This document shows positions 22,085 through 63,679 of a stretch of 64,000 nucleotides of DNA, in pieces. Each line of letters begins with the position of its first letter. The stretch's first letter is position 1. The notes under the pieces are model-generated. The model made no database searches, was not told the origin of the DNA, and worked only from the letters and a program-made list of their open reading frames with translations. Where the stretch lies: contig OX439049.1 of assembly GCA_949317995.1 (NCBI GenBank), positions 15,128,395-15,192,394 on the forward strand, written 5' to 3'. The translations under genes and the position numbers were made by a program. This stretch comes from Acholoe squamosa (taxonomy: Eukaryota > Annelida > Polychaeta > Phyllodocida > Polynoidae).

Positions 22085-22637
22085 ATTTCCATTGATGGAT
22101 ATCACTGAAATCAACGATTTCTTTCATTTCCCTATTCACAGATATATATAAGTCTACAGCATCCAGGGACTGACATCTCTTATTAACGACCAGATTGACA
22201 TCAGGTTTTAGATTTTCAAGGTCAATATTACCTTGAATCAGATTTGTTACCACAAAATCCCCACCAACCAGTCTATCAATCCAGTCCTTTAACTAGTCTC
22301 AATACAAGGATCACTGAATCCAAGGTCAGCCCAACAGGACAGATATTGTGTGCAAATAACAGGGGTATTTAAATCAATAAAACCACCAAGCCATTGCATA
22401 CATTCAGTTGATTGAAGTGGGGAGGCGTTTCTCCATGTAACAATGGGATCTTTACGAGGCAGGAGGTCTCTCTTTATTTCCCTTCGATATTTTTGTGTTG
22501 CAGCTGTCAGTGTGAGTGATTGTCGCCTTCCTGCTACGACATCTGATATGGTTCTGTTTTAGTTGTAATGTCCCTGGACCACTACCTCATCCATCACAAT
22601 GACAGCTTCCTGAGGGATGGAGGTACCTGGGGCCAAA
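22085..22637 (-). pseudogene. Unidentified coding-like remnant
   Basis: The minus strand has protein-like sequence with sensible composition over roughly 170 codons: pieces include GTSIPQEAVIVMDEVVVQG, then RREIKRDLLPRKDPIVTW, then MQWLGGFIDLNTPVICTQY, then GDFVVTNLIQGNIDLENLKP, and it ends at DFSDIHQWK followed by a stop. It is not one uninterrupted frame, so I call it a remnant. I do not recognise the family; repeated W, G and aromatic positions suggest a folded domain rather than low-complexity sequence. It lies immediately downstream, on the same strand, of the 47-bp minisatellite. It could be a decayed host exon or part of a mobile element. Confidence 0.5.
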
Positions 22638-22638
22638 C

Positions 22639-24347
22639 TTGTAGGGCCTTGTAAGGGGCACTTGTATGGTGTAACTGTTGTGACCTTGTAGAGCCTTGTA
22701 AGGGGCACTTGTATGGTGTAACTGTTGTGACCTTGTAGGGCCTTGTAAGTGACACCTGTATGGTGTAACTGTTGTGACCTTGTAGGGCCTTGTAAGTGAC
22801 ACCTGTATGGTGTAACTGTTGTGACCTTGTAGGGCCTTGTAAGGGACACCTGTATGGTGTAACTGTTGTGACCTTGTAGGGCCTTGTAAGGGACACCTCT
22901 ATGGTGTAACTGTTGTGACCTTGTAGGGCCTTGTAAGGGACACTTGTATGGTGTAACTGTTGTGACCTTGTAGGGCCTTGTAAGTGACACCTGTATGGTG
23001 TAACTGTTGTGACCTTGTAGGGCCTTGTAAGGGGCACTTGTATGGTGTAACTGTTGTGACCTTGTTGAGCCTTGTAAGGGGCACTTGTATGGTGTAACTG
23101 TTGTGACCTTGTAGGGCCTTGTAAGGGACACTTGTATTGTGGAACTGCTGTAACCTTGTAGGGCCTTGTAAGGGACACTTGTATGGTGTAACTGTTGTGA
23201 CCTTGTAGGGCCTTGTAAGTGACACCTGTATGGTGTAACTGTTGTGACCTTGTAGGGCCTTGTAAGGGACACTTGTATTGTGGAACTGCTGTAACCTTGT
23301 AGGGCCTTGTAAGGGACACTTGTATGGTGTAACTGTTGTGACCTTGTAGAGCCTTGTAAGGGGCACTTGTATGGTGTAACTGTTGTGACCTTGTAGGGCC
23401 TTGTAAGGGACACTTGTATTGTGGAACTGCTGTAACCTTGTAGGGCCTTGTAAGGGACACCTGTATGGTGTAACTGTTGCACGACCTTGTAGGGCCTTGT
23501 AAGGGACACCTGTATGGTGTAACTGTTGTGACCTTGTAGGGCCTTGTAAGGGACACTTGTATTGTGGAACTGCTGTAACCTTGTAGGGCCTTGTAAGGGA
23601 CACTTGTATTGTGGAACTGCTGTAACCTTGTAGGGCCTTGTAAGGGACACTTGTATGGTGTAACTGTTGTGACCTTGTAGGGCCTTCTAAGGGACACTTG
23701 TATGGTGTAACTGTTGTGACCTTGTAGGGCCTTGTAAGGGACACTTGTATGGTGTAACTGTTGTAACCTTGTAGGGCCTTGTAAGGGACACTTGTATTGT
23801 GGAACTGCTGTAACCTTGTAGGGCCTTGTAAGGGACACTTCTATGGTGTAACTGTTGTAACCTTGTAGGGTCTTGTAAGGGACACTTGTATTGTGGAACT
23901 GCTGTAACCTTGTAGGGCCTTGTAAGGGACACTTGTATTGTGGAACTGTTGTGACCTTGTAGGGCCTTGTAAGTGACACCTGTATGGTGTAACTGTTGTG
24001 ACCTTGTAGGACCTTGTAAGGGACATTTGTATGGTGTAACTGTTGTGACCTTGTAGGGCCTTGTAAGGGACACTTGTATGGTGTAACTGTTGTAACCTTG
24101 TAGGGCCTTGTAAGGGACACTTGTATTGTGGAACTGTTGTGACCTTGTAGGGCCTTGTAAGGGACACCTGTATGGTGTAACTGTTGTGACCTTGTAGGGC
24201 CTTGTAAGGGACACTTGTATGGTGTAACTGTTGTAACCTTGTAGGGCCTTGTAAGGGACACTTGTATTGTGGAACTGTTGTGACCTTGTAGGGCCTTGTA
24301 AGGGACACTTGTATTGTGGAACTGCTGTAACCTGGTAGGGCCTCGTA
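22639..24347. repeat. 47-bp minisatellite, about 36 units
   Basis: The unit begins TTGTAGGGCCTTGTAAGGGA and occurs about 36 times head to tail, nearly all exactly 47 bp (one unit has a 2-base insertion). Two main types differ at the 3' half: type A has TATGGTGTAACTGTTGTGACC, cut at either end by small variants, and type B has ATTGTGGAACTGCTGTAACC. B units begin at the eleventh unit and are common toward the right end. Since 47 is not a multiple of three and the unit contains no stop on the minus strand, all three minus frames stay open and give the same 47-residue repeat in different phase. Confidence 0.95.
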
Positions 24348-24524
24348 GCTAACACACTGAAAGGCATATATCTATCCAGGTGTTAAACCTTTGAAGGGCA
24401 GTGAAAGGAGCGTGCTTAATGATAAAGCTTCATAGGGCCTTGGATGACAGTGAAACCTATTACACTAGTAGGGACTTGAAGGACAATCAGTCTTGTACAT
24501 CTTGTAGTATCCAATTAATTAATC
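24348..24524. other. Non-coding spacer
   Basis: Spacer between the minisatellite and the LINE 3' end; echoes of the unit (ATAGGGCCTTGGA) are visible near 24,430. Confidence 0.4.
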
Positions 24525-24993
24525 AATTTTTTTTAAACAATTTAAACCTTTATTAGCCATAGGTATATTTCATTACATCCGATGTGATTTCAAGAATATA
24601 TTCCACATATATGAGAGTCAACGCTATACCTTAGAAAATTGGAAACATTTTTCTATACATTAAAACATCAAATACAATCTTATATGGGAAAAAAAGGTAA
24701 TCCTAATAGGCTAACTAGTTATTGACTGGCCGTCATTCTAGGAATGTTGTCATGACCAAGCCATATCAAGAAGGTTACAATTATCATTCATAGAGATTTT
24801 TTTTATAATAATAATGGTTTTAAGTTTAATATGAACAGCAGCATTATTCTTTACTTTAAGTACATATTCAATAACATACCCCCACCCTAGAATTATCAAC
24901 ACAATTACAATATTTAAAAAAGTATGACTTACAATACAGTGGCAATCTGACCAATATTGGTTGTAAAAATTATTGTGAAATCTTAAACACTTT

Positions 24994-25330
24994 TCAGAAC
25001 TCATTTTTACAGATAAGCTTAAATTTGTCCTGGTCTCTAATATTTCTGATATCACTAGTTAATCTATTCCAAGTTTGAGCACATTTGACTTCGGGTGATA
25101 ATTCATATGCTGTACAATTTATTTTCTGATGTTTCAATACAGGTGCAGAAGCAAAACGAGTAATCCTAACTTTTGGCTCAATAAAATCGTCATTACAAGA
25201 TTTTTTATGGGCAAAAAGTTTAATATGATAATCTCTCCTTGCGATCAGATTTGGTAATTTGGCATTTTCATGTACAAAGTCAGTTGGTGTTAGCATGTGG
25301 AAATCAAAACATGTTTTGAGACATTTACTT
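24994..25330 (-). pseudogene. LINE ORF2 C-terminal domain
   Basis: The frame begins in KTCFDFHMLTPTDF, continues through LPNLIARRDYHIKLFAHK, RITRFASAPVLKHQKIN and AQTWNRLTSDIRNIR, and ends DKFKLICKNEF then stop. The order 'TPTDF...RRDYH-x-L...WN-x-L-x-x-x-IR...FK' is the standard ending of LINE ORF2 proteins (WN and FK motifs). It joins the endonuclease part at about 25,330 with the RT missing. The methionine at 25,296 is internal to the ancestral protein, not a real start. Confidence 0.75.
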
Positions 25331-25808
25331 TGTAACCTAAAACATAGACTTCATACGAATCCAAATGATCAATCTGCAGAAAAAGTGCTTGTATCGTGTT
25401 ACATAATTTAGTCAGATCACCAGAGGGGGGTCTATATATATTACAAATAATAGCTTTTTTACTAGAACCTTTTATGGAAAATAACCATTGAATTTCAATG
25501 TCCATATTTGTTCTGTTCAAGAAACTAAATTTCTTATTAGTGCAAGACAAAGCCTCATCTACATGGGCACAGAGACCACCTCCCCTGAATATACTAATTC
25601 TATCAAGCCTGAAAAGATTATACCTAGGAAAAGTATACAGTTCTGAACAATCTGTTGCATTTAGCCAGGTTTCAGAGAAAAGTACAATGTCGATGTTACA
25701 ATTAGATAATTCTTCTCTTAATTTAGTAATTTTATTTCTCACACTTCATGCATTTATATGTACCACCGAGAAGCCTTTCTCAAACTTAGTCTTAAGTTTT
25801 TTACTCAT
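25331..25808 (-). pseudogene. LINE ORF2 N-terminus, apurinic-like endonuclease domain
   Basis: ORF2 probably begins at the ATG near 25,808 (MSKKLKTKFEKGFSVVHINA), followed by one in-frame TGA before SVRNKITKLREELSN. Endonuclease landmarks are DIVLFSETWL (catalytic Glu in ETW), NIYRPPSGD (the YRPP strand) and YEVYVLG, where GDFN would be expected next. The domain stops there: the rest of the endonuclease and the entire reverse transcriptase are absent. The enzyme would nick target DNA to prime reverse transcription. This copy cannot be active. Confidence 0.8.
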
Positions 25809-26189
25809 ATATAGGAATAATTAAAGCAAAATCATACCTTGACAATATATCAGTACCGGTACAATTGAGTTTACATTCACAGAAAGTCATTTTAACCAAG
25901 TGGAAATACAAACCACTGTAGCAAAATTATAGATGTCCCAACCCTTTTGATTTCCCATTAAATACAAAAAAAAATGTACATCCCCCTCCCTTCATAGGTT
26001 GACAGCTCTTATGGCTACCTATGAGAGTCAATTAATACAGTTTTAGCAGGAAACTCTCCCAGGGCGTTTACATTTTTCCCATTTTAAAATAAATTTATGT
26101 AGGAAAGTTAATCAATAGTAAAAGGAGAAAATATAACGTTGAGAGGACACAAAATTTTAATAATATGAAAAACTTATTGTAGACAGTTT

Positions 26190-26864
26190 TTACTGGTGTG
26201 GAGGTGTGGGTTCATGGGTCTTGTCTTGTTTGGTTTCATCTTTCTCTACAACGTTTGGCTCGGCAGGGGTGGTCGTCTCCTCGTTCTTGTTAGGATTTTC
26301 ATTAATAATCTTGTCACGTACCCTGGTTAGTATGAACCAAAGCAGGTTTTCACCTTTCAGATTGTCTCTTTTGCACTGATTTGCCTGACTAAAATGGTAT
26401 TTAACCCCCTATATAGGTTGGAAACTAGCTTCATAGAGAGTTAGTCCTTGTGTGGTGGTTATGTAGTCTTTCAGGTGGTCGACAGAGAATTTGGATTTGA
26501 TAATCTCCTCCATGTTGGCTTCAGCTTCTTTGTTCCATTCAGGTGTCGGCCTTACTTTCTTGCCCTCGTACAGGATTTCCACAGGATTTTTCATTTGCAT
26601 GAGTTTAACTGCCACTTCGTTTTGTCGACTTGCTTGAGCTTTTGTGACCTGGTATGCTTGTTCAGCACTGCTATATTCTACTCCTCGATGTATGAAATTA
26701 CACTCGTAAAGATTGGAGAGGATGTGGTGTTTTGATTTGAACATTAAGCTATCAGGGGTTTGCGTCTCCATAGCTTTGAGCATAGTTAAGTCCTGATAGG
26801 GCATTTGACATAACTGTGAAGGATAAATGGTCTTCTTCTCCAGGATCAGAAATCTCTGCCTCAA
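26190..26864 (-). pseudogene. NADAR-like domain in LINE ORF1 region
   Basis: The domain runs from about residue 39 of the open frame: SLMFKSKHHILSNLYECNF, GVEYSSAEQAYQVTKAQ, then a P-x-EILYEGK-x-V stretch, WNKEAEANMEEIIKSKF, and GLTLYEASFQPI. After one in-frame TAG the same frame continues with LKGENLLWFILTRVRDKI and a charged P/T/E-rich tail ending at 26,190. This matches the NADAR (YbiA/DUF1768-like) layout: an F-S-x(n)-LSN-x-Y start, G-x-x-Y-x-S-x-E-x-AYQ, the W...M...KF block, EAS, and a closing G-x-NLL...L...R. Known NADAR proteins act on ADP-ribose or riboflavin-intermediate N-glycosidic bonds; a role here is not known. It lies between the ORF1 RRM-like part and ORF2, on the LINE's own strand. 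Confidence 0.7.
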
Positions 26865-26989
26865 TTGTACTTCGTAGCCCTGTTTTTTTCGTAGTACATC
26901 GCTGGCACATCATTAAAGTCTTTCTGTTCATTCTCGTTGAGCTCATTACCAACTGAGACATATAATTAAGTAGCTTGCCTTTCAGGTTC

Positions 26990-27240
26990 CTAAGATTTTT
27001 CATAACCTTTGATTTGGTGCAGATATTCTTCAAAATAACTCAACTTTGTCTGTGTTTGGGCTTGTTTACGCCATCGTGGTCGCCATCTTGGATCTGAATT
27101 TCTGGTCCCTCGCGATTGCAAGTTTCAACGCATTCTATTCCCTGATTAAAATTAATATCTCTCAGAAATTGTGCTACTTTTACAGACACATCTTTGTTTT
27201 TACTTTCTTCAAGTCCTTTAATTATTAGGAATTTTTTTCT
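26990..27240 (-). pseudogene. LINE ORF1 RRM-like segment
   Basis: In another minus frame than the coiled-coil part, RKKFLIIKGLEESKNKDVSV and then KVAQFLRDINFNQGIECVE resemble the start of the RNA-binding domain of L1-type ORF1 proteins ('I-x-GLEES...V...FL...I'). The following NLRNLKGKLLNYMSQ fits the end of that domain. Frame changes on either side separate it from its neighbours. Confidence 0.55.
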
Positions 27241-27653
27241 TAATTTCCTGGTCCATTTTTTTCGAATCTCTTCATATGCTGTAGAAGCAGGTTTGTTTGG
27301 GTCTTGACACTGTCACTCTGTATCTTAATGGCATCTCCTGCTTCGCCAATTGTCTTTGACATCGTCTCCATGGTCCCTTCAGAAGTGGTAGGCCTACCTT
27401 TTATGCTGTCTAGAGTCTCATTTATATTGGCAATTGTCTGGTTTAATCCATCAATTGATTCCTTAATTTCGTCAATGTTAGATTGCATTTGTGTTTGGCT
27501 ATCTTCTACTGTCAGGAGCCTTTTGTCCATTGAGTTGACAGCTGCAATGACTTCTTTGAGTAAAACTTCTTGGGATATTAAATCAGTCGTCCTCCTCTTT
27601 TGCCTCGACCTTGATCCCTGGTTTGCCATAATTCTGGTGGTGTAGTACTTCAC
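27240..27653 (-). CDS. LINE ORF1 N-terminus, coiled coil
   Basis: 137 codons from the upstream ATG; the second ATG (MANQGSRSRQKRRTTD) is the likelier start. A basic N-terminus is followed by about 80 residues with heptad-like spacing (VIAAVNSMDKRLLTVEDSQ, then NIDEIKESIDGLNQTIANIN, each hydrophobic every third or fourth position), predicted to form a trimeric or dimeric coiled coil as in L1-type ORF1 RNA chaperones. The frame ends at a stop soon after MKRFEKNGPGN, where the RRM-like segment continues in another frame. Confidence 0.6.
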   Translation of the reverse strand: MKYYTTRIMANQGSRSRQKRRTTDLISQEVLLKEVIAAVNSMDKRLLTVEDSQTQMQSNIDEIKESIDGLNQTIANINETLDSIKGRPTTSEGTMETMSKTIGEAGDAIKIQSDSVKTQTNLLLQHMKRFEKNGPGN

Positions 27654-27803
27654 ATACGTCTTCTCAAAGTTTCAAACAATAATTTGTCTCATAACATTAA
27701 AAAAAAATTGGGAAAATATGGTCTGCCCGGTCGGGTGCCGCTTCAAACCAATGCCACCAATTATTGACTTCATTGATTAATCATCATTTGTCACAAACAT
27801 GAT

Positions 27804-51459: not shown

Positions 51460-52640
51460 ATCACATAAATGAAAAGATGATTGGCTAAAAACAGACTTTG
51501 ACAATAAGGCTAGCAAAGACGATGATAGGCATAAAGAATTCGTTGAATTCAAAACCAAGGTGAATGCCAAATTCGAATTACATAAGCAGTTGATCGACCG
51601 GAGCGCTACTCTAAACAGCTTCCCCTGTCCCAACCCTGGCCCGAGTGGCGATCGGGCACCCACCCTCCCAACCACACCTCTCCAGCTATCACAAGCCAAC
51701 CCCGGCAAAGACAGAAATATGATTATTTGGGGTCTAGTTGAAGACGCTACTGAAGGAGAGAGAGAAAACACCAAAATAACTGTTTTAAAATTCATAAACA
51801 GGCTTGGTGGTGACATAACAGAGGCCGATATTATTAAGGCCTATAGACTGCGTCCTCAAGATACCATCCCAATCTGGCCCCAGCTCGACCACTAGTGTGA
51901 GTTGTCTCTGGCACCTAGCGTTTGTGGGTAAAAGAAGTTTTTTCCGCTGGTTGCTGTAGTGCGTATTTGTAGGCAGGTACCTCGCTTAGTAATCTTACCC
52001 AGAAAATGGGGACCATCATCCCCATACACGAGAGAGGTATTCCCTAGAATCCCGACCGGGCGACACTGATACCTCCCCTGACCCTTCCGTCAAAAGCAAA
52101 ATTATGGTATGTTTCAGCAACAAAGAGGCCCTCATTGAGACCATGAGCTTAAGGTCAGGACTCAGGTCACCTATAGGCAACAGCAGGAGATCTTCTTTAA
52201 CTGGAATGAACCTGATGACATACGCTCCACTAGATGGAAGTACAGGCAACTTGTTAAGTACCATAAGTACCATAGAAGAATGAACAATATAACAGATGTC
52301 ACTACTGACGATGGAAAGATGATTTCTGGGGTATCTCAGCCAATTAGACAAAAAAAAAAGACGTCTGACCAAATGCGGCCTCATTTTTAATGGGCCGAGA
52401 GCCGCCTTTAGTAATATTACAAGGCACCCATCAAATACAGACCGTTACTAGAGAATGGATTTGAAGGAAGGGAAAAGACATTTAGCAGCAATGAGCAAGC
52501 CTTCATTTATAATAAGGCTATGTTTCTCAAAAAAAGAAGACATGGCAGTGAGAATATTAAACGAACATGACCTGTTTGAATGCAAAGAAAATAATTGATA
52601 AAGACGAGTTGATGATCTCCTCAGATCACCCATGGTGGGA
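51460..52640 (+). mobile_element. LINE ORF1 remnant
   Basis: Plus-strand pieces of an L1-type ORF1: a coiled-coil-like stretch (FVEFKTKVNAKFELHKQLID), then NMIIWGLVEDATEGERENTK and VLKFINRLGGDITEADIIKAY-like RNA-binding domain sequence ending at RLRP. The best frame is 51,560-51,895 (111 codons); later fragments (FSNKEALIETMSLRSGL, and around 52,190 FFNWNEPDDIRSTRWKYRQ) continue in changed frames with several stops. Not the same family as the NADAR-bearing LINE as far as I can tell. Confidence 0.6.
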
Positions 52641-53118
52641 CATCAGAGTAGAAGTATGAAACATATCGTAGCATGTAAGTTTGAACAAAATGATGAGGTG
52701 ATAAATTGGTGGCCACAACGGCGATTTTGGTGGAATTGACGAAATCGAGTCTCTGGGCCGGCGCCATGTTGTATGAGAGTAAATTGTGGGACAATGGAAT
52801 ATTCCCTGGTCAGAACAAACTCAGAGAGATTCTGATGGATCAACAACTAAACGTACTGCGCGCTCATTGCTATCAAACCTGGACGCACCAGTTGACATGA
52901 ACGAAGAACCCCAGCCTGCACCCACTAGTGAGGACGCAGCAGCATGGGCAACATGGACGTGCACTTGTATGAAGACTTGTGCGTAATGGATTCCGACTAC
53001 AGTTGGGTCCCTTATCAACATGAAATGAGGTGGTATGAATGGCTTGAATATGAAGTGAACTGCAGCAGCATTGGAGACTCGAGAGCTAGATCCCTCCACA
53101 ATGCAATCCTACTAATTA
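52641..53118. other. Non-coding spacer
   Basis: Short open frames only; no recognised feature. Confidence 0.4.
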
Positions 53119-53240
53119 GCGTTTAATCGACGTTATGATAGAGCATGCTTGGGTCTATGGTTCAATATTCCACGACCGCGTAGTGGGAGTGGAATATTGA
53201 ACCATACAAGTGCTCTATCATAACTTGATTAAGGCGTTTA
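53119..53240. repeat. Terminal hairpin of composite repeat copy D
   Basis: Arms of about 52-55 bp (ATGGTTCAATATTCCAC and its inverse at the inner part). The apex GACCGCGTAGTGGGA at 53,174-53,188 is the inverse complement, within two bases, of the copy A apex. The outer ends TAGCGTTTAAT / ATTAAGGCGTTTA belong to the conserved body. Confidence 0.8.
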
Positions 53241-54095
53241 TCTAACATATTTCTCCATTTTGTATCAATTTCTTACCATATAACCCCAGAATGAATCCAG
53301 GAGAAGACATTTTGTAAGTGCATACGATCCGCTCGGTTTGCCAAGCCGTCGTGGCCATGTTGTCGTTCTGCCCGACATACCTCCACCTTTAGACACATTT
53401 TTTGGGTATAATCCAAGCGTGTCAAGCCCTGTTATTCTAGCACCGCCAAATATCTGATCTCTAGTTGGTGTTCGCCTACATTTTGTATCCATTTTCTTTG
53501 AAATAAATAAGAATCCATTGATTTTCCATAGCGATCCAACGCACACGGCCCGGTACACGGCCATTGCGTCTTGTTGACCAAGCTGGGAGGTGCCCGGATG
53601 TACCTGGCCTACTTTAGGGTCGGCAAGCCGCAATGGTGGGTGCTGAGCCATAGCGCTATGGAAAATCAATGGATTCTTATTCATTTCAAACAAAATGGAG
53701 AAAGTAGGCATGGCATGTTCATCTAGGATATCTATGGAATGTTCCCTGTTAATAACTCCACCTTCCACCATTGGATTCTATGCTAACGAGGTCTGTAAAC
53801 ATCAAGTATGTCGGAAATATTTTTCAAATACTTGATGGACATTGGTTTGTAACACCAGTCGACTTGGTATAGTGGATAGCGAGCTCGCCTCCTGCCCCAG
53901 CGGCCGGGGATCGATTCCCTGTTGAACCCTGAACGGTTTTAACTGGAAATGTATGGAGGAGTTGACTTTGTATACTTAGCCAATTTATTAACATGTCCAG
54001 ATTGAAACTAGCAGCCTCTTGAAGACGAAGAAAAGGTCTCAGAGTGCGTTATGGCTGGATAAGGAACTGGGGTTATGAGCAAAAAAGCACTGTCC
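53119..54095 (+). repeat. Composite tRNA-headed repeat, copy D (most complete)
   Basis: Order on the plus strand: terminal hairpin (53,119-53,240); ATTTCTTACCATATAACCCC (a minus-strand splice donor); a roughly 400-bp body with an internal inverted repeat (arms at about 53,502-53,541 and 53,650-53,690, containing AATCCATTGATTTTCC and its inverse); a tRNA-like head at 53,861-53,920 (TGGTATAGTGGATAGC as the A box, GGGGATCGATTCCC as the B box); and a tail through GGTTTTAACTGGAAATGTAT to GAGCAAAAAAGC. A 168-codon minus frame lies across it but is not conserved in the other copies, so I do not call it a gene. Confidence 0.8.
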
Positions 54096-54328
54096 AGGCC
54101 CAAATCATTAGATAAGGTACAGTAACTACACGGGTACTCTCGCCATTCCGGGCGCCCCAATACATGCGGTAAACAAAATGATTGTGGAACTGAATACATT
54201 CCACCATGTTATATGCCCCCGCCCAGATCACCAGCTACATGTCTATGACAGTCGCCTGGGTTCCTGTATGTTGAAGAACAGTGCTCCATAATGTAATAAA
54301 ATTGGGTGAGTGTCTCTTGAAGTGTCTT
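54096..54328. other. Non-coding spacer
   Basis: No recognised feature. Confidence 0.4.
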
Positions 54329-55080
54329 CAGGAGCTTAATTCAAAACATCCTGGGATCCCAACCCCAGCAATCTTAGTGTAGGCACATATCATAAGACCT
54401 GACTGGTCTACCCTATGTAATGCAGTGGTTGCAGGCCTGTCCAGAATAGGAAGTCCTGGGATCACTTCACTATTCACATTTCCACCACTAAGATCACTGC
54501 GATCTTAGTGAAAGAAATGCATAGTGGTTTCACCTGAGTACAAGAGCACTTACAGGGAACACTCCTGATCGAAAGAGTGAATAGCCTGCTGCATACATAA
54601 AGAGGGGAGGGAGGACGTTTGCTGAGTGTCCTTGAGGGCTCTTAGGGCTACTCATGCATTAAGTGCACTGTAAGGTAATTCTTCCCTTCTCTCTCTTTGT
54701 CCTGGGGGGAGGGCACAATGCTTCTAATAGGCAAGCATAAATCATACATTCATGGGAACAACTCTTGAATACTGTACTGGGGTCAACTGCGCCCTGTGCT
54801 CTTCTGTTAGCCCATATGGGGACGGGGAACGATGGTATAAGCACTCTTGTGAAGAAGAGTGACTCCACAGCTATTCCTTTATTTTGGGACTCTTACCCCT
54901 GTGCCTAGTCAGTTCTTCTTGGAATAATGTAGGAGGGCTGAGGCTAAGATCGATGCGATCTTAGTGCTGGCTAGGATATGTGAAACCAGTCAACTCTTAA
55001 GATCGCTTAATAGGATAAGGCTGATTTATTCCTAAGATCGCTGGGGTCGTGATCCCAGAATGTTTTGAATTAAGCTCCTG
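54329..55080. mobile_element. Non-autonomous TIR element, 752 bp, 48-bp TIRs
   Basis: The left end CAGGAGCTTAATTCAAAACA is matched by the inverted right end, with TIR identity continuing to about 48 bp (through CCTGGGATC and CCCCAGC-x-ATCTTAG) with four or so differences. Inside, the word TAAGATCG or its inverse CGATCTTA recurs several times, often as near-palindromes such as TAAGATCGATGCGATCTTAG. These look like spaced transposase-binding sites. Non-coding; no clear target duplication, superfamily uncertain. Confidence 0.85.
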
Positions 55081-56299
55081 GTTACATTGGGTGGACAATT
55101 ACCGTGCTTGTAGCAATTAAGACCTGTGTCGCCTTATTATCTTGTTGTGTATCACTTGTCCTGTGTAAACACTCACTGTGCCCTTTAATGGTGACTCTAA
55201 AAAACCTTTCCAGGTTTAGGTGTGCATACACCAGTGACTATGACTGTAGATGTGGTGATATACCAGTTACCCATCTACCCTGAAGGGACATGCCCATTGC
55301 CGATACTCCACCAGCCATGGCCGATATGATCCATAAGATGGAGTACAGTCATCCACCCATCAGTGCGCAATTACTTGAATATTACACTATCGACCAGATT
55401 AAGGTAGGCGTGTCACTGTATTAGCCTAACCCCTGACACAATGCCGCAGGACTAAGACATTGTCGCATTGAATGGTCACACACAGCTGACTGGAGGAACA
55501 TCTAGGGTGAGCTAAAATACAATGACTGCACCTCTTATTGAACTTGCACTGGACTTTTCATTGAACTTTTCATCAAGAGACATATATGTATTGCTTATTT
55601 TAACCTTATACTGAATTGGCCATTCCATTTATATCTCCTGACATTTATTTCTCCACTCACATGACCATACATTCTTGTTGTTGTATTAGCCATGTTAATT
55701 TCATAATGTACTAGTCATCACCACTTTATTCAGCTCTGAGGTTCGCGGAGCCCCTCAGTCCCCTGAGTGAGTCTATTTAAATACCCCCCGGTATTGACCC
55801 CTAGGTTGGAGACTACTACCTCGGTCCGTGCCCAGGGGTATGTTTCATAATGTTGTACGATGACTAAATTAATGTACTATCACTAAAATCATACAACAAA
55901 GACAGAATCTGGGTAAACCATAGGTTTTACATGATAACATAATACAGAATTATACCAAGCACTAGCATAGCGTTCTACACCTGGGATAGTTCTACTATGA
56001 TTATCAACAGTCTGATGTAATTTTCCTTGTAGTTCAATGACTCATTGTGGTCCAAAGGGCAGCATTATGATTATCAACCAATCGCACAATTTCTGATCGT
56101 TTAGGATACAAAATGTGAGGCAAATCGTTGCCTGTTCTGAAAGATACCCCTGATCAAAAACCCCAGTACCACAACTCTGGGCCAGATCACCCCCTCCCCT
56201 AACAAGACACCGTACTAAGCCTGTCTAGAGTATGGCCATAGACGATGCTGAAAGGAGAGTCCAACTCGTTAATAATCAATTGTATCTGAATTGTTCGAC
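55081..56299. other. Non-coding stretch, one weak exon-like ORF
   Basis: At 55,290-55,403 an ATG frame reads MPIADTPPAMADMIHKMEYS and on to TIDQIK before a donor-like AAGGTAGGCG. It is too short to judge. Nothing else seen. Confidence 0.3.
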
Positions 56300-56642
56300 T
56301 TATGTAGGGGACATAGCATTAAGAGGTTAAATACGACGACATCACTAGACCTAATGAATTAGGCCTAAGTGGTACCTGTATTGATTACATCGTAATAGAT
56401 TGTGACATCATTAGCCACACAGGAGTATTGGACTGCATGCCTGCACACCATTATGCTGTGCAAGCTTGTCGGAAAAAGCCCAGAGAAATTAAAACTAATA
56501 GCTGTTTTACAGGCTGGTCCTATAAGAACTACGACCGGCAAGACTCTATTGAATATCTAGCCTGTATTGATTGGTCAGGGTTATATAATTCAGTTGACCT
56601 AGATTACCAATGGTTACTTATACAAGAATCATTTATTGAATA

Positions 56643-56889
56643 GGGGGTCTAGATGGGGGGTCCCGATGTCACATGTCGATTTTAAGAAAAGGCAATGTCA
56701 CATGTCATTAAATTTCAATTTTCCCATGTCTTTGTCACTAAGCTCCATGTCACATGTCGATTTTAAGGAAAGGCCATGTCTCATGTCACTAAACCTTTCC
56801 TTCTCAATGTCATTGTCACTAAGCTTCATGTCACATGTCGATTTTAAGAAATGGCCATGTCACCCTGTCGAATTTAGGGGTCCAGACCC
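56643..56889. mobile_element. MITE, 247 bp, 8-bp duplication, inserted in the LINE
   Basis: Flanked by perfect ATTGAATA copies at 56,635-56,642 and 56,890-56,897. Ends: GGGGGTCTAGATGGGG on the left; inverted GGGGTCCAGACCC on the right. An 8-bp duplication fits hAT-like insertion. The interior is 2.6 units of an 81-bp tandem repeat starting ATGTCACATGTCGATTTTAA. Removing one duplication copy plus the element restores the LINE frame: ...QESFIE then YLDVVCPHK. Confidence 0.85.
56667..56876. repeat. 81-bp tandem repeat inside the MITE
   Basis: Two full units and one partial, each beginning ATGTCACATGTCGATTTTAA and containing GTCACTAAGCT. As 81 is divisible by three, it makes a short repetitive frame (MSHVDFKK...) that I do not call a gene. 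Confidence 0.85.
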
Positions 56890-57711
56890 ATTGAATACCT
56901 TGATGTTGTCTGCCCTCATAAAACCTTTAAGGTGACTAAAGAGCCAAAGCCCTGGGTAACTGCTGAAACCATTGAGTTGATTAATGAGAGAAATGCACTT
57001 ATAGCAGAGCTCAAATTTACTAAATGCCGCAACACATTGAAGATTGTATGCAGATTACGCAACCGGAACCATCGTCAGCTTGAATACTCGCATGTTGTCT
57101 TGCGCAAATTATATGAATGTCTGGGAACCAGTGATGCAGTCTCTAGTGTTGTCAGTAAGCTATATGAGGCCAAGGATGATGGCAACTTAACCATAGCCTG
57201 TTTTATAGATTTTTTTCAAGGCTTTCGACTGTGTCCACCATTTGACCCTGATCACAAAAATTCACCGCCTCAATATCCGCGGTTGCTCAAAAAATGGCTG
57301 ACCAACTACCTGCCCATAGAGCTCCCGAAAGACTATGCAATGGAGCAAGGGCAAACAGAGTGGAGGTCCATTTTGGCGTGCCTCAGGGCTCGAATATGGG
57401 CCGGCTGTTGTTTGTGTTGTTCATAAATGACATTTCTGATGCTATATTGCATTGTGGTTACACCATGTATGCTGATGATCTGGGCTTATATGCATCTGCT
57501 AAAACAGTCCATGAAGCAAAAACACTCCTTCAATCAGATCTGCTCAGGATGAGCACATGGCTATGGGTATGTCTTGCAGTTGGGCAATATTGTCTCTCCT
57601 AGATGCATATCTGGACTTGGGAGGTTTTTTAGAGTCAGCATCAATAGTGTAAAAAGCATGTGCGTGTATTTTGGTAGCAACAGACGTATAAAAAATCTCC
57701 TAATCTGCACC

Positions 57712-62523: not shown

Positions 62524-62650
62524 CTTCGGGATCCAAATTAACCGTCAGTTGGCGGATATCCTTCAAGCGGCACACACCACGCTGGGTGGTGCCGGAAATT
62601 TTAACGGTTTTATCCGTTTTTCCAAATTAATACGGTGTTAACCTATCATT

Positions 62651-63679
62651 ATGGGTAGGAAAGGAACAACTAGCGGCACACAAAGGTCCAAGACCAAGAA
62701 GTCGCCTAAAAAACCAAGGAATATTGCCAACTCTAGGATTTCGAGCAGTGCAGACTCCAATGGGGGTGGTCATGGATCATCTTCCCCAACTGCTACTGGG
62801 GGTTCATTGGATTTGCCTGTTGACCAGACGTATATCGGGGAGCTGGAGGAACGTACTACTCGTATGGAGCAGCAGCTCGAAAACATCCGGTCCTTATTGG
62901 AGAACCAGGCGGCTAAACGGACATGTGCTTCAGCAGCGGCATGCGAGACTGAGACGGGTTGTACACGTGGTGGTGTTGATAAACATTCCACAGACAACAT
63001 GGTAACCAGGCAACGGGGGCGTGGCCGGCAGCGCTCGCCTGACTACCGGGGTCTCCACGGCGACAAGAAGGGACGTCGCCATCTTGAATCTTCGAGTAGA
63101 TCGTCTTCATACCGTAGTATTTCGATGGATTCATCGGATTCTATTAGGACTAATGCCTCATGGAACGGTCGTCGGCATGCTAAAAAGTCTAGAGGTATGT
63201 TTGATCAGAGAAATTTCTTGAAGAAGGGTGAAAAAGTGGATAGTATCGAGAAACTGCTGCTTGTTAACATCAGGACGATAAAACAGTTGATAGAGGAGGG
63301 TGAAGATGTTTTCGAGGTGGTTAAGCATATTGAAGTTCTATTGAAAAAGTCCTCTACCAGAATATATACTTTGAAAGCTTTGGTAGCTTACGATTCATCG
63401 GTGAAAAACAGAGCTAATGTTGAGGGTATTGAGTCGTTTGGCGATGTTAAAAGTGAGGATATTCTTAGGCACCTGTCTTATGACGGAACGGTGCAAGCTC
63501 AGAAGGCGGGTGGGGCTAAGCCTAAGTCGTTCAAGTCAAAACAATCCAACCGGACCTGTTATGCCTTCAACAGGGCTGAAGGCTGCAGGGAAGACCCGTG
63601 CAGGTATCGTCACATTTGTGAGATTTGTAGCATGTCAAACCATGGTAAAGACAAGTGTCAAAAGAACAAAAAAGACTAG
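62651..63679 (+). CDS. Gag-like protein with CCCH and CCHC zinc fingers
   Basis: 342 residues. The N-terminal 30 residues are basic and K/S/T-rich. A coiled coil is likely at about 55-88 (YIGELEERTTRMEQQLENI). Residues 110-175 are R/S/G-rich and probably disordered. A helical region follows at about 190-255, including SIEKLLLVNIRTIKQLIEEG. The C-terminus has two zinc-binding motifs in tandem: C303-x8-C312-x4-C317-x3-H321 (CCCH type) and C323-x2-C326-x4-H331-x4-C336 (a classical CCHC knuckle), then a lysine-rich end. This fits an RNA-binding particle protein. The ATG at 62,651 is the first in frame, just after an A/T-rich leader. Confidence 0.75.
   Translation: MGRKGTTSGTQRSKTKKSPKKPRNIANSRISSSADSNGGGHGSSSPTATGGSLDLPVDQTYIGELEERTTRMEQQLENIRSLLENQAAKRTCASAAACETETGCTRGGVDKHSTDNMVTRQRGRGRQRSPDYRGLHGDKKGRRHLESSSRSSSYRSISMDSSDSIRTNASWNGRRHAKKSRGMFDQRNFLKKGEKVDSIEKLLLVNIRTIKQLIEEGEDVFEVVKHIEVLLKKSSTRIYTLKALVAYDSSVKNRANVEGIESFGDVKSEDILRHLSYDGTVQAQKAGGAKPKSFKSKQSNRTCYAFNRAEGCREDPCRYRHICEICSMSNHGKDKCQKNKKD

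What the first reader, a model, noticed from the sequence alone, without database searches (positions are those of the whole stretch)
26190..27653. A LINE whose first-ORF region encodes a NADAR-like domain
Seen: on one strand and in LINE order lie a coiled coil, an RRM-like segment, a NADAR-like block (LSN-x-YEC, YSS-x-EQAYQ, W...M...KF, YEAS, GENLL...R) and then an apurinic endonuclease ORF2. Known: NADAR (YbiA/DUF1768) proteins hydrolyse N-glycosidic bonds in riboflavin intermediates or ADP-ribose-type substrates. Inference: the domain belongs to the retrotransposon and might remove ADP-ribose from nucleic acid or protein, for example to evade PARP-type host defence. The orientation and the tail that continues to 200 bp before the endonuclease ORF argue against a chance neighbour.
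Basis: partly seen in the sequence, partly recalled or inferred. Interest (0 to 1): 0.8.

Follow-up and report, generated by a model that had tools for sequence, protein, structure and literature searches.

The report
NADAR enzyme domain in LINE ORF1
A jumping gene in this animal genome carries, fused to its putative RNA-binding protein, an enzyme domain of a family known to strip ADP-ribose from DNA and RNA bases; the copy seen here is dead, but relatives of several LINE types in the same genome keep the domain.

Summary
Window 26307-26735 (-) encodes a NADAR domain (PF08719, E 1.2e-12; 4.6e-21 with one in-frame stop read through), in frame behind the ORF1p C-terminal region of a LINE whose ORF2 starts 381 bp downstream. 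This copy is dead: frameshifts, stops, an ORF2 deletion. It is no chance neighbour. In the same 1.48-Gb genome 150 of 150 scored PF08719 matches pass the cut-off (3224 unconfirmed candidates); 32 of 32 ORF1 copies checked (of 133) run into NADAR sequence; 4 of 5 loci picked by RT score carry NADAR. It occurs in at least five supported RT groups, one of the L1 superfamily. Both catalytic glutamates are kept in 33 of 33 aligned domains; dN/dS is 0.07 in one pair of the window family (RT 0.05). One family (L065) lost catalytic residues with its frame open. Not wholly new: a 2025 paper mentions NADAR in ORF1 of oyster Tx1 LINEs. New here: spread over unrelated LINE types, a second ORF1 architecture, and selection evidence. 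Best explanation: an ADP-ribosylhydrolase tethered to the LINE RNP that cleans its RNA or cDNA. Activity, substrate and anti-defence role are inferred.

The parts
24527..27759 (-). dead LINE copy; limits from blastn against own-genome relatives L020 and L021
27240..27671 (-). ORF1 N-terminal frame with coiled coil; first ATG of the MANQGSRSRQK stretch at 27629
   Evidence: relatives L020, L021 with the whole ORF1 open
27040..27312 (-). RRM-like part of ORF1, another frame (frameshift)
   Evidence: group-to-group profile similarity only
26736..26909 (-). end of the ORF1p C-terminal region, in the same frame as the NADAR
   Evidence: 131 of 150 own-genome matches of P0001 (window itself included) begin at query residue 1-7, so run through this junction (counted by eye)
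26307..26735 (-). NADAR domain (P0001 residues 59-201). E83, K90 and E160 correspond to E43, K50 and E125 of the Phytophthora NADAR
   Evidence: residue roles from PMC11543638 section 12
26409..26411 (-). in-frame TAG inside the NADAR, at the column where 19 of 33 own-genome NADARs have W
26190..26306 (-). end of the domain's frame: polar ORF1 C-terminal tail and ORF1 stop
25293..25808 (-). start of ORF2: ATG at 25808, endonuclease N-terminal part, one TGA inside (25746-25748)
   Evidence: weak Pfam hit of its own, clear one in relatives L030-L032
25334..25426 (-). junction at which L020 has about 1.8 kb more (rest of EN and most of RT)
24997..25350 (-). C-terminal end of ORF2
   Evidence: matched by L020, L021 and L032

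Best explanation
The window holds a dead copy of a two-ORF LINE whose ORF1 protein is coiled coil + RRM/CTD-like region + NADAR (shown by sequence; RRM/CTD by layout and profile comparison only). The NADAR is an integral, selected part of ORF1p in this family and in several other LINE types of the genome (shown). Most likely ORF1p coats the LINE RNA, and the tethered NADAR works as an ADP-ribosylhydrolase that removes ADP-ribose from guanines of the element's RNA or single-stranded cDNA, so that reverse transcription is not blocked (inferred). The modification might be placed by host ADP-ribosyltransferases (inferred; none found here). My estimates: integral part of the LINE 0.97; active hydrolase in most families 0.75; nucleic-acid guanine-ADP-ribose as substrate about 0.4.
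For: Profile, fold and active site. Both catalytic Glu in 33 of 33 aligned own-genome NADARs (31 LINE-type including the window and some near-copies, 2 stand-alone), the Lys as K in 29 and R in 4; in E. coli C7 NADAR K-to-R still hydrolyses in vitro but no longer rescues cells (PMC11543638). Selection: L020-L021 dN/dS NADAR 0.07, rest of ORF1 0.11, RT 0.05; window-L020 NADAR 0.10; in group C the NADAR is better conserved than the rest of ORF1 in four of four pairs (amino-acid identity 0.89 v 0.72, 0.83 v 0.74, 0.76 v 0.61, 0.61 v 0.37), synonymous sites being saturated. Linkage: 20 of 20 chosen loci have a same-strand EN or RT ORF downstream of the NADAR ORF (by eye; Pfam for seven of them); 32 of 32 checked ORF1 copies run into NADAR; 4 of 5 RT-chosen loci carry a NADAR over the Pfam cut-off. 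NADARs remove ADP-ribose from guanine in DNA and RNA (PMC11543638 two sections and passages; PMC11833690 passages). Six edible clams show guanine-N2 DNA ADP-ribosylation, CARP-1 being the cloned enzyme (PMC11209040, passages).
Against: No activity was measured. L065, found by RT score and not by NADAR, has an open 485-aa ORF1 whose NADAR (71 bits) has lost the second catalytic Glu and the Lys, so in at least one family the domain is kept or drifting without the catalytic set. The W of the W-G motif is replaced in 13 of 33 aligned domains. Two near-identical Tx1-like copies give dN/dS 0.37 for NADAR (RT 0.27), on few changes, and in L020-L021 the NADAR is no better conserved than the rest of ORF1 (0.87 v 0.90). 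No DarT (PF14487) match in the genome; the Scabin-like search (PF22596) rang in no control genome and says nothing. L066 has no NADAR in the 3.8 kb read.
Confidence: 0.45

Rival explanations
1. The NADAR is kept as a catalysis-independent module: it binds ADP-ribose-like ligands, nucleotides or RNA and helps RNP assembly or recruitment.
For: L065 has an open ORF1 with two catalytic positions lost; the W-G tryptophan is replaced in 13 of 33 domains; known ORF1p domains are thought to bind, stabilise and chaperone the transcript (PMC4120745, passages).
Against: Both Glu are invariant in 33 of 33 aligned domains, among groups that share only 20-29% identity with the window domain outside its own family; a pure binding role would not obviously need both.
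Confidence: 0.25
2. The NADAR is an enzyme on small molecules (YbiA-like cleavage of reactive riboflavin intermediates or free NAD/ADP-ribose derivatives), a metabolic helper unrelated to the element's nucleic acids.
For: It carries the Glu that PMC11543638 gives as the mark of the YbiA subfamily; NCBIfam TIGR02464 (riboflavin intermediates N-glycosidase) scores 71.9 against a cut-off of 73.7 (stop read through).
Against: Fusion to the putative RNA-coating protein in many LINE families suggests a nucleic-acid-near role; the TIGR02464 cut-off is not reached.
Confidence: 0.15
3. It processes the LINE RNA intermediate in some way not involving ADP-ribose, as the Ectocarpus authors suggest in general terms for retrotransposon NADARs.
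For: Suggested in PMC12477816 (passage).
Against: No RNA-processing activity of a NADAR appears in the passages read; the ADP-ribose pocket residues E43, K50 and E125 are conserved.
Confidence: 0.1
4. Chance neighbour or captured host gene in this one copy only.
For: The window copy is degenerate, and two stand-alone NADAR frames exist in the genome (L001, L002). In the 3.4 kb around each, L001 has no other ORF of 100 aa and L002's others are tandem-repeat peptides.
Against: Contiguous CTD-NADAR frame in 131 of 150 matches (by eye), 32 of 32 ORF1 copies checked, different LINE types. The window NADAR groups with its LINE relatives, not with L001/L002.
Confidence: 0.01

Closest known systems
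Tx1 LINEs of Crassostrea gigas with NADAR in ORF1 (Repbase families mentioned in PMC12477816; passages read)
   Same: LINE; NADAR in the ORF1 protein; the L011/L014/L007 type here has an L1-superfamily ORF2 (L014: 253 bits to human L1 ORF2p), so is probably this kind.
   Different: The window family's ORF2 (L020) scores only 54.6 bits to L1 ORF2p and its EN begins with the NxRSxxNK...SETWL pattern that I recall from Jockey/CR1-type LINEs; further RT groups and a NADAR/SGNH-like ORF1 are added here.
[quoted passage not shown]
   Same: NADAR captured by a retrotransposon.
   Different: LTR element, domain in Pol; here a LINE, domain in ORF1.
Type II (CC-RRM-CTD) and type IV (esterase) ORF1s of LINEs (PMC4120745, passages)
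   Same: Layout of the region before the NADAR (by reading and profile comparison); an SGNH-like ORF or stretch in several types.
   Different: No mention of YbiA or DUF1768 in that paper's main text; here NADAR is added C-terminally.
Phytophthora nicotianae NADAR (8bau) and E. coli YbiA (2b3w)
   Same: Fold and the residues E43, K50, E125.
   Different: 8bau and YbiA are not retrotransposon proteins; 26% and 18% identity in the structural alignment.
DarT1-associated NADAR antitoxins (DarTG1)
   Same: NADAR fold, first Glu and Lys.
   Different: They use an Asp (D171) in place of E125 and sit beside DarT (PMC11543638); the genome has no DarT match.

Membership tests
NADAR (PF08719) | profile score over the curated cut-off | tested here: met
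   48.9 bits without and 76.2 with read-through, cut-off 35.1
NADAR (PF08719) | NADAR/YbiA fold | tested here: met
   model pLDDT 91.3; only 8bau and 2b3w at E <= 0.001; stop read as W in the model
NADAR (PF08719) | catalytic Glu (E43-like), Lys (K50-like), Glu (E125-like) | tested here: met
   window E83, K90, E160; 33/33 E, 29 K + 4 R, 33/33 E in the aligned set; L067-L069 keep all three, L065 has lost Lys and the second Glu (these four are not among the 33)
NADAR (PF08719) | ADP-ribosylhydrolase or N-glycosidase activity | not testable with these tools
   needs an enzyme assay
YbiA subfamily / TIGR02464 | Glu at the E125 position | tested here: met
YbiA subfamily / TIGR02464 | NCBIfam equivalog cut-off 73.7 bits | tested here: not met
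   71.9 bits with read-through; not filed as a riboflavin N-glycosidase
DarT1-associated NADAR antitoxin | Asp in place of E125 and a DarT partner | tested here: not met
   Glu at that place; PF14487 0 matches in G000, control rang in 1 of 14 genomes
LINE (non-LTR retrotransposon) | ORF1 then ORF2 with EN and RT on one strand | tested here: met
   in relatives: 20 of 20 chosen loci have an EN or RT ORF downstream (by eye), RVT_1 in 7 of 7 RT frames tried, EN in L030-L032; in the window only the EN start and the ORF2 end remain
L1/Tx1 superfamily | ORF2 close to L1 ORF2p | tested here: not met
   window type L020: 54.6 bits, RT only; for comparison L014 type 253 bits over 576 residues
Jockey/CR1/L2-type LINE | RT groups with named members of those clades | not testable with these tools
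   no named LINE references at hand; EN pattern recalled only

The most novel reading that the evidence does not exclude
Several unrelated LINE types have armed their RNA-coating protein with a guanine-ADP-ribosyl hydrolase that undoes a host nucleic-acid ADP-ribosylation defence: the retrotransposon counterpart of the DarT-NADAR conflict of bacteria and phages, in an animal whose relatives may make guanine-modifying ADP-ribosyltransferases such as clam CARP-1.
Probability: 0.25. Interest if true: 0.88.

Novelty: new variant of a known kind. Interest (0 to 1): 0.62.

Why it matters
The physiological roles of NADARs in eukaryotes, animals included, are called unclear in PMC11125620 (passage). 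If in this genome most NADARs sit in LINE ORF1 proteins, as the loci read here suggest, the answer may lie in retrotransposition, and a simple assay (does LINE NADAR free ADP-ribose from guanine in RNA?) would test both a LINE biology question and whether animals use nucleic-acid ADP-ribosylation against mobile elements.

Tried and rejected
Searches of about 5.8 billion proteins with the window ORF1 join and the NADAR frame alone found nothing at E <= 1e-3; the 18-row profile did (30 proteins), among them P0004, whose N-terminus looks like an ORF1 C-terminal region followed by NADAR, from an unnamed 729-bp contig. Single-sequence PDB searches of the NADAR: none. IMG/VR scan with the window frame: no relative. 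tblastn in phage records: 590 records at E <= 10, best 81 bits and about 36% identity, annotated NADAR in some: distant homologues, no sign of a phage source for this copy.

Single or multiple capture of NADAR by LINEs is not settled: in the 52-row tree the Tx1-like NADAR (L014) falls with P0004 beside stand-alone NADARs, but an AU test does not reject one LINE clade (p 0.351). The NADAR/RT distance ratio is lower between the Tx1-like or S type and all others (0.31-0.64) than in the other pairs printed (0.48-1.25), but distances are saturated.

A profile of the pre-NADAR ORF1 region found coiled-coil matches in PDB, L1 ORF1p among them, none reaching the RRM/CTD part in the rows shown (60 of 65 shown). 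A profile of the middle ORF found nothing in PDB, so SGNH-like is my reading of motifs by eye. Scabin-like ART search: uninformative. The weak calpain-protease hit beside PF08719 (0.0016, below cut-off) is taken as chance.

Full report
Observation. The minus strand of 24527-27759 is a LINE copy (blastn limits against relatives). ORF1 is split over frames: a coiled-coil frame (27240-27671), an RRM-like frame (27040-27312) and a frame (26190-26909) that begins in the ORF1p C-terminal region, runs without a change of frame into a NADAR domain (26307-26735) and ends in a polar tail. One TAG interrupts the NADAR at 26409-26411. ORF2 starts with an ATG at 25808, shows an N-terminal EN part with one TGA, and is then joined to the C-terminal end of ORF2; L020 has about 1.8 kb more at that junction. 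So the window copy can make neither protein whole. The window's EN frame alone scores only 0.16 in Pfam; the EN frames of its relatives L030, L031 and L032 pass PF14529 at 2.9e-9, 5e-10 and 3.4e-9.

The domain. Pfam NADAR: 1.2e-12 as it stands, 4.6e-21 over profile 8-162 of 163 with the stop read through. A profile of 18 own-genome NADARs (window included) finds two PDB sequences at E <= 0.01, the Phytophthora NADAR 8bau (5.8e-26) and YbiA 2b3w (2.5e-21); the window sequence alone finds none. AlphaFold2 with 29 database homologues: pLDDT 91.3; Foldseek again finds 8bau and 2b3w and nothing else at E <= 0.001. By alignment the window's E83, K90 and E160 are the residues E43, K50 and E125 that contact ADP-ribose in PMC11543638 (section 12 read). 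There the equivalents of K50 and E125 are needed for activity; at E43 the change to Gln inactivates, the change to Ala has a minor effect in vitro.

The genome. From size, chromosome-like count and LINE content I guess a marine mollusc (inference only). PF08719: 3224 first-look candidates, 150 scored, 150 over the cut-off; the rest are unconfirmed. The window domain as query: 2993 candidates, 150 scored, identities 51-85% apart from itself, many in open frames of 460-470 aa. For comparison RVT_1 has 39499 candidates, 150 scored.

Linkage to LINEs. From the 150 matches I fetched 20 for variety and long frames, so they are not a random sample. In 20 of 20 a same-strand ORF with EN or RT lies downstream (by eye), and 19 of 20 show the RT YADD box in the element's own ORF2 (in L027 the YADD seems to belong to another element). 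Pfam finds RVT_1 in 7 of 7 RT frames tried. L031 and L032, of the window's wider family, have an open ORF1 of 464 aa and, about 270 bp on, ORF2, which is itself interrupted in both; no wholly open ORF1 plus ORF2 pair was seen in the window family. A search with ORF1 without NADAR (L020 residues 1-300) gave 133 matches. I fetched about 0.76 kb across and beyond the end of 32 of them, chosen because the match reached the end of the query and I had not seen their NADAR: 32 of 32 are followed by NADAR sequence, 26 with 100 residues or more in the two best pieces printed, six with 12-90 (L036, L038, L039, L040, L045, L047). No copy with a clean NADAR-less end was seen among these 32.

Kinds of LINE. 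By ORF2, L014 is L1-superfamily (253 bits to L1 ORF2p over 576 residues), while the window type (L020) is not (54.6 bits). In the RT tree Tx1-like, W (window), B+C, D and S are each a supported group (98-100 bootstrap); C alone is not (B falls beside L013), and the two E rows are not joined because the long Tx1 branch meets them. In the NADAR tree all seven groups W, Tx1, B, C, D, E and S are single groups with support 97-100. In W, Tx1-like, B, C, D, E and F the last 190 residues before NADAR are linked by profile comparison (W-C 94%, Tx1-C 94%, B-C 99.9%, B-D 95%), though several direct pairs fail (W-Tx1 0.2%, W-D 1%, Tx1-D 2%, Tx1-B 24%, C-D 46%); S matches none. In S (L009, L010, L015, L019, L027) NADAR stands between a low-complexity N-terminus and, where the frame is long enough, an SGNH-like stretch. 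So NADAR occurs in at least two ORF1 contexts. Whether LINEs captured it once or more often is open (AU p 0.351).

Selection and catalysis. L020-L021: dN/dS NADAR 0.07, pre-NADAR 0.11, RT 0.05; window-L020 NADAR 0.10. In group C synonymous sites are saturated, and NADAR identity exceeds that of the rest of ORF1 in four of four pairs (L018-L022, L024-L028, L018-L024, L013-L018); the pre-NADAR frames were read from the preceding stop, which may lower their identity. L020-L021 shows no such excess (0.87 v 0.90), and the near-identical L011-L014 gives 0.37 for NADAR, 0.27 for RT. Both catalytic Glu are kept in 33 of 33 aligned domains and the Lys is K in 29 and R in 4 (31 LINE-type including the window and near-copies, 2 stand-alone, nearly all chosen from high-scoring NADAR matches). 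Against this, L065, chosen by RT alone, has an open 485-aa ORF1 whose NADAR lacks the second Glu and the Lys; L067, L068 and L069 keep all three.

Mechanism. Shown: a NADAR, open and selected in relatives, in the LINE's ORF1 protein. Known from papers read in part: NADARs hydrolyse guanine-linked ADP-ribose on DNA (PMC11543638) and RNA (PMC11833690), and clams have guanine-N2 DNA ADP-ribosylation (PMC11209040). Inferred: ORF1p carries the hydrolase to the LINE RNA and cDNA and clears ADP-ribose that would block reverse transcription. Rivals are a binding-only role (favoured by L065), a YbiA-like small-molecule role and RNA processing.

Prior art. PMC12477816 (passages) reports NADAR in Ectocarpus Gypsy Pol and, in one sentence, in ORF1 of several C. 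gigas Tx1 LINE families. In my searches of the open PMC library (in 8, 39 and 111 only the first 10-20 of 90 to 1,259 papers were listed) I saw no other paper linking NADAR/YbiA/DUF1768 to LINEs; papers outside that library were not searched. PMC4120745, PMC11203168 and PMC10294476 (passages) have no YbiA or DUF1768 in the main text; the last two were also searched for NADAR, with none found. I therefore rate it a new variant of a known kind.

Noticed in passing
L009, L015 (oriented 5'->3': ORF1 ends 6163 / 5542, ORF2 frame starts 6167 / 5546): In the NADAR/SGNH-like type, the ORF2 frame follows ORF1 in the same frame after a single stop codon, which suggests read-through or reinitiation.
   Followed up: no
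L004, L006, L008, L017, L018, L022, L023, L024, L028; also L065, L066, L067: An extra ORF of about 130-305 aa downstream of the NADAR ORF1, before ORF2 where that was read; SGNH-like by eye in most; no Pfam hit for the L018 and L066 ones, a weak sub-cut-off one for L023, and no PDB hit for a 5-row profile.
   Followed up: partly
L065: LINE ORF1 with an open frame whose NADAR has lost the second catalytic Glu and the Lys: a possible pseudo-enzyme NADAR.
   Followed up: partly
L001:1501-1950 and L002:1501-1947: Two strong stand-alone NADAR frames (183.8 and 169.3 bits; frames of 222 and 247 aa), possible host NADAR genes, grouping with database NADARs P0002, P0003 and P0005 rather than with the window's LINE NADARs.
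   Followed up: partly
window 22559-24382: Long repetitive stretch open in several minus-strand frames (repeated YKALQGHNSYTIQVSLTRP-type peptide), near the 3' end of the LINE copy.
   Followed up: no
window 51473-57602: Pieces that look like another, decayed LINE on the plus strand (ORF1-like piece at 51473, YADD box in the 57252-57602 frame); no Pfam hit in the two pieces tried.
   Followed up: no
window 62642-63679: 345-aa plus-strand ORF with Cys/His-rich C-terminus, looks like a gag-type protein of another retroelement; no Pfam hit.
   Followed up: no
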